A stretch of DNA of 64,000 bases from Pezicula radicicola (Eukaryota; Ascomycota; Leotiomycetes; Helotiales; Dermateaceae): contig PDUO01000118.1 in NCBI GenBank assembly GCA_003008705.1, positions 4,591 through 68,590 of the forward strand. The letters are read 5' to 3'. Under the pieces are notes generated by a model. The model had not been told where the DNA came from. It saw only the letters and a program-made list of their open reading frames with translations, and made no database searches. Each line of letters starts with the position of its first letter. Within the stretch, counting starts at the first letter, position 1. Both the position numbers and the translations under genes were made by a program. Below are positions 47,677-60,026 of the stretch, one piece after another.

Positions 47677-49205
47677 TTATTGCCTACTATTATTTTGAAA
47701 GAGAAGTAGGAGAACCACTGAACTTAGTGCCGCCCATACTCCTGCTATGACTGTAAACGCCCAGCTCACTCCTATGGTATTGATCATGGGCATTATGATA
47801 GCAGTTGCAGCAGAACCAAGAAAGCATTGTACCAAGTTATTAGCTGCAGTTGCGGTTGCGGTTGACTCAGGGCTGAGGTCAATAATTAGAACGTTCATAC
47901 AAGAGTATGCTGCTGTTCCCGTGAATCCAAATATGAACAGATTGATAAGTGGTATTATTGGATGAAGATGTAAGTGTATCGATCAGGCATAGCCTAGCAT
48001 TGACATGTTCGCCAAAAGTACCATTGGTAAGGCGACCGGGAGGAGTGATTTCTCGACTGAAAACTCAACTCGTTCGCAATCATGGTGGTCAAGGTTACGT
48101 CCCTTAGATACTTTGATGCCAAAGGTAGTCGCAACGCGTCGATAGTTCCAGTCTACTAGGAATCTATTTCCTATGGCTGCTAGCATCGTTCCCAGACCGA
48201 TAGGAACGTAAGCAAGCCCAATTTGAACGTCACCGATATGGTAGGTATTGTGGAAACAGAATGTGAGACTGGATGTGATTGAATAATAGATAGCAAAGCT
48301 AAAACCGTTGTAAAGAAGAACACAGCCAGTTGGATATTCAAAGAGCAGACGCAGGGTACGCAATGGGTTAGGAATATTTGAACTTTTCTTTCTTGTAGAC
48401 GCATCGCCGTGATCCACAGTGAGACTATCATTCTTAGAATTTCTGTCGTGTACGAACCAAGATACGATAGATTTCTTCCAGGCAGAGCTGGGTGGTACGG
48501 AACCATTTCCGACGATGCTACGGCATGTCTCGGGCAGAAAGCCTAGCAGGATAATGAAAATAGTTATAGCAGCAGCAGCCAGAAATATGAAGATGTACCG
48601 CCAACCAAGCTGCTGGCTTATGATGCCCCCAAGGACTGGGCCAAAACTCGGGCCAATGATTGGTCCAACAGAGGCGAATCCGATGTACTGGCCACGTTCA
48701 CTGGATGTGACAATGTCGGCCGTTACAGAATATGCCAAGTTGACTGTTGAGCTACTGCCAGTGCTCTGCAAGTAACGGATAAGAAGGATACCAACGAAGG
48801 TATTCTGATATGCCAGCGCAATGTTTGCTGCAATTTACGTCACAAAACAGAAGATGTACATAGGCCTCCTTCCGATTGTATCAGAGTACGAAGCGATGAA
48901 CATCGGAGACAAGCCTTGAAATATCTGAGAATATATTAGTATTGCACATAGTTTCACTGTTATAAGGATTGCTATCTCATGAGAGTGAACCCACCATGTA
49001 CGACGTGATTGTAGCATTGAGAAGTTCTGGGTTGATATGTAATTCTCTTTTTATGGCAATTAGAGCTGGATAGTAGATATTGGCGGCCAGTGGCGAGAAA
49101 ATTGATGCAGAAGTACCTGCAATGACTATCATCAGCCTCTGATGCGGGCTGAAAATGGTGTAGCTCGCTTGGGTCCCTAAGTAGTGGACTCTGCTCGTTC
49201 GCCAT
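47677..49205 (-). pseudogene. decayed MFS exporter (DHA1 type) with a frameshift and two in-frame stops
   Basis: The start MANEQSPLLR (ATG at 49205) is one base out of frame with the following SYTIFSPHQRLMIVIAG, the normal TM1 approach of these exporters. The shift lies near 49172-49178 in a GGG run. An intron at 48994-48925 with a CTAAT branch and CTCAG acceptor joins NATITSYM to IFQGLSPMF in phase. A TAA at 48835-48837 interrupts just after the IGRRPMYIFCFVT motif. A TGA at 47983-47985 interrupts after SMLGYA, at a position where a Trp would fit. All frames around these breaks keep clear MFS homology, including SVGPIIGPSFGPVLGG (motif C) and SPESTATATAANNLVQC. In context, probably the product exporter of the dead cluster. 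Confidence 0.82.
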
Positions 49206-49869
49206 CGTGATAACTGCGCAATAGGTAAATTTGGAAGTTAAATTCAAGTCCTGGCTCGAATAATAGCTTATCACATGGCTACTGATACTGAACAAGACAC
49301 TAAAAATATTAAGTGTATTGTAGCCGCAGTATCCATGGAGCTGTTAAAGAAGTTGCCGAGCCGAGAAAAGTACCCGACAAGTATCATCCGAATATCTCGA
49401 AAGGAAAGTTCCGAAACAAATATGGGGGATGGATAGGGTATTAGGTGAGATTATTGACTAAGAGAACTCATTATCGCAATCTCAGTCTCGATCTATAGGT
49501 ACCTCTTGGCTAAGTGATTGCTTCTACTTTGGGGTCTAATCCAATTTGGTGACTCGACCATTGCTTTCAAGTTCGCTTATTAACCATCACATTTTTTCTG
49601 GGACAGCTCCTCTGTTAGGTAAGCTTCAGCAGGATAACACCGTCGGCTTTGATTTCATAAGGGTCGAATAGAGATAACAGCAGTTCCAGCGCCCACCGCT
49701 ATTACAGCGAGCACTATAAACTCATTGCATTTTAGGCCACTTAATATCTCTGTGTGATACCAATAAACGGTCTCGTATCGATGCAGATTTCAGCCTGCCC
49801 GAACTCCCATGTTACAACAAAAGAAACCTTGGGAGCTATAAAAGACACCTGGCACTGCTCTGAAACTTC
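49206..49869. other. intergenic within the decayed cluster
   Basis: No coding homology recognised in about 660 bases. Confidence 0.45.
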
Positions 49870-50600
49870 CTAAGTTTGCTGCCCGAAAAATTCCTTGGTA
49901 TAGTCTTTTAGATTATCAAGGCCAAAAACCCGAGGCTCACCAATCATAGCATCTCCGCCAGAAATAGTAAAGTAATTCGCTGCTACAGGAGGATCTAACC
50001 CAGCAGCGTCCATAAACTCGGTTATGTTGAAGAAGAGCCTTGCGGGTATCGTTGGTTCCATGTATTTCTCGAAGCGGTCAGGGAGTTTGTAGTCTTCTGG
50101 CTGTATACACAGAAGTTGGACATAGCGGTGCATAGTTCCATCTGGAGGTGACGGACCCCCGTACAAAGCTTTCTTGCTATTGCTAAACGTTGGAACCAGC
50201 TCGCGGGTCTCAATGTCGAGGATAAGATCTAGCTAGTACCAAGGCAAAAGATGCGTTACAGAGCCATTAAAATTAACGTCAATATTGATCATGAATGTCA
50301 TATAAATTGATTGAGAACAGATGGCCATTCTCATTAGGCTTAGCCGAGGGGAGTTAAAGTGTCTGTATTACCGTTAATTAATTGTCCCTAGCTACTTCAT
50401 AAATAATTAGAAACACGTATACCTGTCTTCGAGACAGGGTAACCAGGGCAGAAGACTGCAACATTGTTGTTAAAGGTAACCCCAAGGCGATTTGTTGAGC
50501 TCGGGGAAAGCCCTGGTGGCGTCTGGGCTTGAGCAACTGGCGCTGATAATGAGAAAAGTGGAAAAGCTAGAGTAACGATTTGTATGTATGTATCCATCAT
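49870..50600 (-). pseudogene. secreted PEBP-like protein, disrupted (copy 1)
   Basis: Phosphatidylethanolamine-binding protein fold. Exon 1 (from ATG at 50600 to about 50424, donor GTATAC) encodes a signal peptide (MMDTYIQIVTLAFPLFSL) and the first sheet. The body has YMTFMINIDV, YGGPSPPDGTMHRYV (the ligand-site region) and PVAANYFTI near the C-terminus. A TAG at 50233-50235 interrupts a continuous homologous frame. A 45-nt in-frame intron starting GTTAAT is the only escape, and it would delete conserved residues. The acceptor of the first intron does not join in phase in any way I could find, so a second lesion is likely. PEBP-like proteins accompany maleidride cyclisation enzymes. Confidence 0.7.
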
Positions 50601-58061: not shown

Positions 58062-58516
58062 TGCTCCTTGTTGTAGAGCTCAAAATTACATAAAGTCAAG
58101 CAATCCGAGTGTTACTATTCTAGGCGAGCAAGGCGATCGCTCTCGCTTAACTTAGGTAAAGAGCTTTATTTTCAGATTTGGAAGCATGAAAATTGCGATT
58201 ATTACATAATTACTATCTCTTTAGTACAACAAGTTAAAGACTAAATGAGTTGTAATAATGTGAATTATAATACTTGGTCCCTTCTGGTAGAAAATCTAGT
58301 AGAGCATAAGTAAAACTTTACAGATATGACATGTCGGGTCATTCTGCTAAATACCCCGGAGACCGTATAAAAGCTTCCGCAACCAAGCTTTGTAATATAG
58401 CCGAAAATTAGACATCTAAAATGCTCAGAGGTTCCCTTTATTAGACTCGTATCGTTAGATTCTTTTTATCGGTTCATGTTAGATTTCTACCTTTTGACCA
58501 TATTGGCGTCATCATC
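58062..58516. other. spacer between synthase and dehydratase pseudogenes
   Basis: 455 bases, tandem gene order, no feature recognised. Confidence 0.45.
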
Positions 58517-60026
58517 ATGCCTCGGCAGTATGATAAACCCATTGTAGACATAGTGGATTACATTTTCAATTACGAAATAAAAGAGGAAATTTTTTGGCGG
58601 TGCGCTCGAATGGCGCTGTGAGATGCAATGGGATGCGCCATAGAAACAGCCTCCAAGAGCGACGAATGTAGGAAAATGCTTGGGCCAACAGTCCCTGGAA
58701 CAGTGGTACCAGATGGATTTCGGTTGCCAGGAACTAGTTACGTGCTTGACCCTATCAAAGGCGCCTTCGATATGGAGACCCTAATACGCTATCTGGACCA
58801 TAACGACGCGCTCGGTGGTGCAGAATGGGGCCACCCTTCAGGAAAGTACCCAAATTTTTCCAGATCTATCAAGTACGCGTTCTAATACGTCTGCAGATAA
58901 TATAGGTGCAATACTTGCGGTAGCGGACTGGCTTTGCCGTTCTTCTACAAGTGGTAGACTCAAACATACGGGGCCGCCGTTGACCATTCATACTCTTCTT
59001 ACCGCCATTATCAAAGCCTACGAGATCCAGGGCTGCTACCAGATACGAAATGCCTTTAACATTTACGGTATTGACTATGTAATTCTCGTCAAGCTTGCAT
59101 CAACAGCAGTGGTATCGTGGCTACTCGGATTGACCAAGGAGCAGACCATGGCGAGCATTTCGCACGTATGGATGGATGGAAATCCCAGCCGAGTCTATCG
59201 CAGCGGCACAAATACAATCCCTCGCAAGGGATTGGCGGCAGCCGATGCTTCTATGAGAGCTGTACACTTGTCGCTATTGACAAAGGCTGGTCAGATAGGA
59301 GCTTCAGGTGCCCTGGGTGATCCGAAATGGGGGTTTTATTCTCGTTCTTTCGGTGACAAACAGTTTGATCTACCTAAAACGTTCGGCGAGTGGGTGATTA
59401 AGAAAGTTGCATTCAAGATAATGCCTGTGGAAGGACATGCAATCTCCGCCGTCGAAGCAGCACTGATTCAAAAAGATCGCCTTCTAGCGAGAGGACTGGA
59501 ACATGGAGAAATTCAGAAAGTTGAAGTGCGAACAACTGCGGCAGCCAATCTGATTATCAATAAACAGGGACCGTTACATAATGCTGCTGATCGTGACCAC
59601 TGTATACAGTTCGTCATAGCATTGGCATTGTTGAAAGGTGGTCCGCCTGAGACCCAGGACTACAGCGATAACAGCGCCTTGGCGAAAAGCCAAGATCTTG
59701 CAGCACTCCGTGAGAAGATCGAAATCCACACTGACGATCAACTTACCCAAGATTATTTGAACCCTGAGATAAAGAGTGCGGGCTCTGGGATAACTATTTA
59801 CTTGAAAGATAACACTGTTCTAGAAGTGCTTGTTGAGTTTCCTGCCGGCCATGTGCGAAATAATCGGACGGCAAGTTTGCAGCGGGACAAACTTTTGAGG
59901 AATATAGGTTTGATGTTTTCCGATCAAGAGATAGAGGATATTTCATTAGCTATAAAAGACGATAACATGATGATCATGGATTTCGTGGATCTTTTTAACC
60001 GGCAAAAACCCGCTAGTAAGTTGTAA
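58517..60026 (+). pseudogene. 2-methylcitrate dehydratase-type enzyme (MmgE/PrpD) with a stop and a lost splice donor
   Basis: Two exons (58517-58841, 58897-60026) sum to 485 codons, the family length. The start MPRQYDKPIVDIVDYIFNYE is typical. A TGA at 58619-58621 interrupts just before DAMGCAIETA. The intron should begin after the G of HPS(G/D), but the bases there are GAAAGT where a GTAAGT donor is expected. Its branch (CTAAT) and CTGCAG acceptor remain, and joining at this point restores phase into NIGAILAVADWL. The second exon is uninterrupted, with HVWMDGNPSRVYRSGTNT, GDPKWGFYSRSFG and FKIMPVEGHAISAVEAAL. It would dehydrate the alkylcitrate to the maleic-type monomer in a maleidride pathway. 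Confidence 0.88.

What the first reader, a model, noticed from the sequence alone, without database searches (positions are those of the whole stretch)
47677..60026. Fossil maleidride-type (alkylcitrate) biosynthetic gene cluster
Seven adjacent loci are an MFS exporter, two PEBP-like proteins, an AflR-like regulator, a KSI/NTF2-like secreted protein, a citrate synthase and a 2-methylcitrate dehydratase-type enzyme. Established knowledge: citrate synthase, MmgE/PrpD dehydratase, KSI-like and PEBP-like genes together mark maleidride clusters such as those for byssochlamic acid, rubratoxin and cornexistin. Seen in the sequence: each of the seven carries at least one disabling lesion. Inference: a once functional maleidride locus has died as a unit in this lineage.
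Basis: partly seen in the sequence, partly recalled or inferred. Interest (0 to 1): 0.92.

Follow-up and report, generated by a model that had tools for sequence, protein, structure and literature searches.

The report
Decayed remnant of maleidride gene cluster
A fungus carries the broken remains of a gene cluster related to those that make maleidrides (paired-anhydride natural products): seven neighbouring genes are recognisable but all disabled, and two of the usual core genes were not found beside them.

Summary
Window 47.7-60.0 kb carries seven disabled fungal genes: MFS exporter, secreted PEBP, AflR-like regulator, second PEBP, dimerising cyclase (the KSI-like protein), alkylcitrate synthase and alkylcitrate dehydratase (ACDH). 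The cyclase's C-terminal piece is 84% identical to Coleophoma crateriformis BP5796_13040; the next named hits are the dimerizing cyclases of Talaromyces stipitatus and the phomoidride cluster. The ACDH's best named hit is C. crateriformis BP5796_13031 (66%), then PhiI. The second PEBP matches BP5796_13039 (57%), consecutive with the cyclase homologue as the two genes are adjacent here. I count 12 nonsense codons, three frame breaks and one non-canonical splice site; two apparent cyclase stops are intronic. No RIP signature. Corrections: no KS, PS-DH or FSH1-hydrolase match was found on this contig, so this is a core-incomplete remnant. 'Died as a unit' fits the nonsense counts (P 0.14-0.28, weak test) but is not shown. 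A second alkylcitrate cluster, FAS-type on C129, is also decayed.

The parts
47680..49205 (-). Fossil MFS exporter: 2 nonsense codons and a frame break near the N-terminus
   Evidence: Pfam MFS_1 2.3e-24; tblastn of the window's own open MFS (41973-43511) runs across both stops in one frame; frame break read from the three frames
49870..50600 (-). Fossil secreted PEBP (PEBP1): 1 nonsense codon
   Evidence: PF01161 25.7 bits across the stop; three pieces collinear with an own-genome PEBP in L021
51007..52430 (-). Fossil Zn2Cys6/AflR-like regulator: frame break at about 52.02-52.05 kb
   Evidence: Zn_clus 5.4e-7 and AflR 3.7e-3 (below cut-off) in two different frames; three-frame reading
53893..54514 (-). 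Fossil PEBP2: frame break, 2 nonsense codons in the C-terminal part, no in-frame start
   Evidence: 57% to C. crateriformis BP5796_13039, 63% to P0126
54929..55630 (+). Fossil maleidride dimerising cyclase (KSI/NTF2-like): 2 nonsense codons; intron 55371-55418 with GT-AG ends
   Evidence: C-terminal piece 84% to BP5796_13040, 77% to phiC; tblastn over residues 7-215 of 225; intron ends
56440..58061 (+). Fossil alkylcitrate synthase: 4 nonsense codons; four introns with GT-AG ends, judged by eye
   Evidence: Citrate_synt 4.3e-22; 50% over 252 aa to own-genome PKS-linked ACS on C2; intron ends printed
58517..60026 (+). Fossil alkylcitrate dehydratase: 1 nonsense codon in exon 1, non-canonical 5' splice site, exon 2 open
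   Evidence: 66% to BP5796_13031, 63% to PhiI; tblastn of six listed ACDHs; tree
55664..55768 (.). MITE-like inverted-repeat element just after the cyclase gene
   Evidence: 115 genome-wide matches from 40 scored of 190 candidate places
60522..60674 (.). Second copy of the same MITE-like element, after the ACDH
   Evidence: C21:65112-65172 and 65196-65264

Best explanation
This is the decayed remnant of a maleidride-type biosynthetic cluster, closest to those of Coleophoma crateriformis and the phomoidride producer. When alive, a polyketide chain activated as CoA ester would have been condensed with oxaloacetate by the ACS, dehydrated by the ACDH to a maleic anhydride monomer, and dimerised by the cyclase with PEBP help; the MFS would export and the AflR-like protein regulate (all inferred from the named families and PMC8851701). 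The PKS and the hydrolase are not on the contig, probably deleted, and the seven remaining genes then took point lesions without selection (order inferred, not shown). The locus now should make no product.
For: Cyclase and ACDH best named hits are C. crateriformis and phomoidride-cluster proteins. The three C. crateriformis hits lie on a contig of the same length, 622907, and the PEBP2 and cyclase homologues have consecutive numbers there and are neighbours here. The ACDH exon-2 piece pairs with C. crateriformis (90/87) in a 10-row group (100/99) that also holds PhiI; the genome's own FAS-linked ACDH lies outside. Lesions in 7 of 7 genes. No RIP signal over the cluster (composite index -0.42, flanks -0.31 to -0.51). 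The FAS frames on C65 are open over 1433, 1035 and 576 codons while the C129 copies are broken, so stops are not a genome-wide fault. Implied neutral change since loss of constraint 0.044-0.058 per site for transition bias 1 to 4, intervals 0.023-0.101.
Against: No PKS or hydrolase match was found, so a complete pathway at this place is not shown. PEBP2's best named hits are not known maleidride proteins. The ACS, MFS, PEBP1 and regulator were not compared with outside sequences. No reads, RNA data or sister genome. Numbers 13031 and 13039 leave seven genes between ACDH and PEBP2 in C. crateriformis, so gene order differs. The regulator shows 0 nonsense and the ACDH 1 where about 2.7 and 2.6 are expected under one rate (not significant). 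That the BP5796 genes are the cluster meant in PMC8851701 is inferred; the passages I saw give other accessions.
Confidence: 0.85

Rival explanations
1. The stops are assembly or sequencing errors and the cluster is alive.
For: One N at 50948 in a C run shows local uncertainty; no reads are available.
Against: Twelve substitution-type stops in six of seven adjacent genes, while the five flanking frames checked are open (chosen for being open); near the frame breaks I see no base run longer than four (sequence); no PKS or hydrolase match on the contig.
Confidence: 0.04
2. It was a FAS-based alkylcitrate cluster (sporothriolide/oryzine-like), not a maleidride one.
For: The genome has a FAS-linked ACS/ACDH cluster on C65 and a dead copy on C129, and no PKS match lies on C21.
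Against: A dimerising-cyclase gene and two PEBP genes are present; ACDH 63-66% to PhiI and C. crateriformis against 49% to the own FAS-linked one; ACS nearer to the PKS-linked copy; no C65 FAS frame matched C21 at E 1e-5.
Confidence: 0.03
3. The seven genes never worked as a full pathway here: an incomplete cluster arrived by transfer or duplication and decayed at once.
For: No PKS or hydrolase match on the contig; the cyclase piece has no other match in the genome.
Against: Seven complementary functions lie together, with introns largely kept and about 5% implied neutral change. None of this dates the arrival.
Confidence: 0.08

Closest known systems
Coleophoma crateriformis orphan maleidride cluster (BP5796_13031, _13039, _13040; identity with the cluster of PMC8851701 inferred)
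   Same: Closest named homologues of ACDH (66%) and cyclase (84% over the C-terminal piece); a PEBP next to the cyclase by gene number
   Different: There seven gene numbers lie between ACDH and PEBP, and the paper reports a PKS; here all seven genes are broken and no PKS or hydrolase match was found
Phomoidride cluster (phi, strain ATCC 74256) and Talaromyces stipitatus cluster 1
   Same: PhiI 63% (ACDH); PhiC 77% and a T. stipitatus dimerizing cyclase 67% over the C-terminal piece
   Different: Those clusters have a PKS and make or are predicted to make hexaketide monomers (PMC8851701); this is a remnant
Byssochlamic acid, cornexistin, zopfiellin and scytalidin clusters
   Same: ACDH 58-60% to proteins of their producers; same ACS/ACDH/cyclase/PEBP set
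   Different: Working clusters with PKS and hydrolase
Own-genome FAS-type alkylcitrate clusters, C65 (FAS frames open) and C129 (decayed)
   Same: ACS and ACDH; C129 is likewise dead
   Different: FAS instead of PKS; C65 ACDH 49% identical and outside the group of the window piece

Membership tests
Maleidride biosynthetic gene cluster (core set in PMC8851701) | Highly reducing PKS | tested here: not met
   None of 146 KS matches (131 of 149 candidates scored) and none of 60 PS-DH matches (62 of 62 scored) is on C21. C21:1-4590 reads N, and the contig ends 11 kb beyond the ACDH
Maleidride biosynthetic gene cluster (core set in PMC8851701) | AlnB-like hydrolase | tested here: not met
   None of 20 FSH1 (PF03959) matches (28 of 28 scored) is on C21; the choice of PF03959 for AlnB-like hydrolases is recalled
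Maleidride biosynthetic gene cluster (core set in PMC8851701) | Alkylcitrate synthase | tested here: inconclusive
   A fossil citrate-synthase-family gene is there, nearest to the PKS-linked own copy; its clade among outside ACSs was not tested
Maleidride biosynthetic gene cluster (core set in PMC8851701) | Alkylcitrate dehydratase of the maleidride clade | tested here: met
   the 18 outside rows of the tree were all taken from its own hits
Maleidride biosynthetic gene cluster (core set in PMC8851701) | Maleidride dimerising cyclase | tested here: met
   84% to BP5796_13040, 77% to PhiC over the C-terminal piece; alignment over residues 7-215 of 225
Maleidride biosynthetic gene cluster (core set in PMC8851701) | PEBP-like protein (not universal) | tested here: met
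   Two fossil PEBP genes; assignment to the paper's type 1 or type 2 not tested
Maleidride biosynthetic gene cluster (core set in PMC8851701) | Makes a maleidride | not testable with these tools
   Needs chemistry; all seven genes are disabled

The most novel reading that the evidence does not exclude
This fungus has separately lost two clusters of the same chemistry, a maleidride-type one (window) and a FAS-type alkylcitrate one (C129), while keeping the C65 cluster and a PKS-linked ACS on C2. The maleidride PKS and hydrolase may have been cut out of the locus first, perhaps moved to another PKS locus, leaving the maleic-anhydride and dimerisation half to rot. If so, the locus records a stepwise death of a dimerisation pathway.
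Probability: 0.2. Interest if true: 0.5.

Novelty: new member of a known kind. Interest (0 to 1): 0.42.

Why it matters
Loss of fungal metabolite clusters by pseudogenisation is known (recalled). For maleidrides, the one paper in the held library with both 'maleidride' and 'pseudogen' has the second word only in a reference title; nothing outside that library was searched. A recognisable remnant shows that the pathway reached this lineage, offers a locus whose loss could be dated against sister species, and adds relics of one dimerising cyclase and two PEBP genes.

Tried and rejected
RIP as the source of the stops: rejected, indices over the cluster are like the flanks; only the stretch behind it (window 60001-61000) and four 1-kb windows elsewhere exceed 0.3. 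Sequencing error: unlikely (see rivals). Four stops in the cyclase: two are intronic. Solved structures with the cyclase C-terminal piece: three matches at E 1.4-2.4, meaningless. Extra Pfam genes in the gaps: five short frames (52.9-53.2, 53.6-53.9, 60.7-61.1, 62.5-62.9, 62.8-63.2 kb) gave none at E 0.1. PKS debris: frames of 80 aa or more from 13 fetched loci, among them the first part of the C2 PKS, gave no PKS match on C21 at E 1e-5. A second cyclase copy: none by its C-terminal piece at E 0.1. KS, FSH1 and PEBP matches near one another on C84 were a lead; the stretch could not be fetched and was dropped. A first lesion-rate script had wrong ACS frames; one search replaces it.
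Full report
Setting. The window is C21:4591-68590 of an unnamed fungal genome of 61,044,626 bases in 152 contigs; C21 is 75,964 bases long. C21:1-4590 reads N.

Genes. On single open pieces Pfam gives MFS_1, PBP (twice), Zn_clus, AflR, Citrate_synt and MmgE_PrpD. The AflR match (17.7 bits) and the PEBP1 piece (22 bits) are below the curated cut-offs; the genome search scores PEBP1 at 25.7 bits across its stop, and its three pieces are collinear with an own-genome PEBP. 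The KSI-like protein has no Pfam match in three pieces.

ACDH. The open frame holding exon 2 (413 aa) gave 3200 proteins at E 1e-30 or better among 7998 scored candidates, 120 listed. Named ones include C. crateriformis BP5796_13031 66%, PhiI 63%, Diffractella curvata 60%, ScyR7 59%, Paecilomyces divaricatus 58%, P. fulvus 58%, Talaromyces stipitatus 57%, T. atroroseus 56%, Bipolaris 55%. That these organisms have maleidride clusters is from PMC8851701, of which I read the outline, section 5 part 1 of 2, section 9 (both parts), section 14 part 1 of 2, and four passages. Many other listed hits (Aspergillus, Penicillium and unnamed ones) have unknown context, and A. fumigatus P0006 (63%) ranks beside PhiI. 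In a tree of 24 rows (window exon-2 piece, 18 of the 120 listed hits, 5 own copies) the window piece pairs with C. crateriformis (90/87) inside a 10-row group (100/99) with PhiI, one Xylogone and six Aspergillus or Penicillium rows; the own FAS-linked ACDH falls outside the 19 rows of window and hits (100/99).

Cyclase. The C-terminal piece (72 aa) gave 5 proteins of 6 candidates: C. crateriformis BP5796_13040 84%, a T. stipitatus dimerizing cyclase 67%, PhiC 77% over 72% of the piece, and two unnamed. tblastn of BP5796_13040 covers residues 7-215 of 225 and shows two in-frame stops in coding sequence and two more inside a GT-AG intron. The genome holds no second match at E 0.1.

PEBP2. 42 of 106 candidates passed E 1e-5. 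The best rows bear no organism; the first named are Periconia (a Dothideomycete), Bimuria and Lophiostoma, then BP5796_13039 at 57%. BP5796_13031, _13039 and _13040 all lie on a contig of 622,907 bases in those listings. _13039 and _13040 are consecutive, as PEBP2 and cyclase are adjacent here; seven numbers lie between _13031 and _13039.

ACS. The best own-genome relative is on C2: 50% over 252 aa, 54% over the best-kept piece. There it lies beside a PKS (KS and PS-DH matches) and enoyl-CoA hydratase/isomerase, P450 and methyltransferase frames. The FAS-linked C65 copy is 46%. No outside ACS was compared.

Lesions. Twelve nonsense codons: MFS 2, PEBP1 1, PEBP2 2, cyclase 2, ACS 4, ACDH 1 (ten read, PEBP2's two). 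Frame breaks: MFS, regulator, PEBP2. One non-canonical splice site: ACDH. Over 2287 codons of the open pieces the implied neutral change is 0.044, 0.050 and 0.058 per site for transition bias 1, 2 and 4, with intervals from 0.023 to 0.101; one common rate for all seven genes is not rejected (P 0.28, 0.22, 0.14). The test has little power, and it counts PEBP2 stops that lie beyond the piece used for its codons. RIP indices over the cluster resemble the flanks.

What is missing. None of 146 KS, 60 PS-DH or 20 FSH1 matches in the genome is on C21 (in one search, 131 of 149 candidates were scored). PMC8851701 says that the confirmed clusters all hold PKS, hydrolase, ACS, ACDH, cyclase and PEBP, and that all known and putative ones have a hydrolase, though some reconstitutions worked without adding it. 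The locus therefore fails the membership test for a complete cluster, and I file it as a remnant. Flanking genes are open where checked: five frames, and a VOC-family frame upstream and a HET-domain frame downstream.

Context. The genome also has a FAS-type alkylcitrate cluster on C65: FAS beta (Fas1-AflB-like helical domain, SAT) and FAS alpha (ACP, helical, KS C-terminal, ACPS) domains in open frames of 1433, 1035 and 576 codons. A collinear copy at C129, about 157-172 kb, is full of stops: matches to the 1433-codon frame hold about 25 (overlapping matches, so approximate). MITE-like elements sit after the cyclase and after the ACDH.

Verdict. A real, decayed, core-incomplete maleidride-type cluster; ordinary as a process, unusual as an example. 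On checking, the ACS row of the membership test was lowered to inconclusive, and confidence went from 0.86 to 0.85.

Noticed in passing
G000 C129, about 157-172 kb (L039-L041), against C65:120-157 kb (L033-L037): A decayed collinear copy of a FAS-type alkylcitrate cluster: FAS, ACS and ACDH matches with many stops, while the C65 FAS frames are open.
   Followed up: partly
L046 (C2:22001-32000): PKS next to an ACS, with enoyl-CoA hydratase/isomerase, P450 and methyltransferase frames, but no PrpD match on this contig.
   Followed up: partly
55664-55768 and 60522-60674: Two copies of a MITE-like inverted-repeat element, 115 matches genome-wide.
   Followed up: partly
G000 C84:341743-348710: KS, FSH1 hydrolase and PEBP matches within 7 kb, no citrate-synthase or PrpD match on that contig; could not be fetched.
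   Followed up: no
46594-47142: An open glyoxalase/VOC-family frame (Glyoxalase_4, 5.1e-12) directly beside the dead cluster.
   Followed up: no
L042 (C145:15001-25000): Another PrpD-like gene with several stops (1 TGA and 4 TAG in one match, 1 TAG in another).
   Followed up: no
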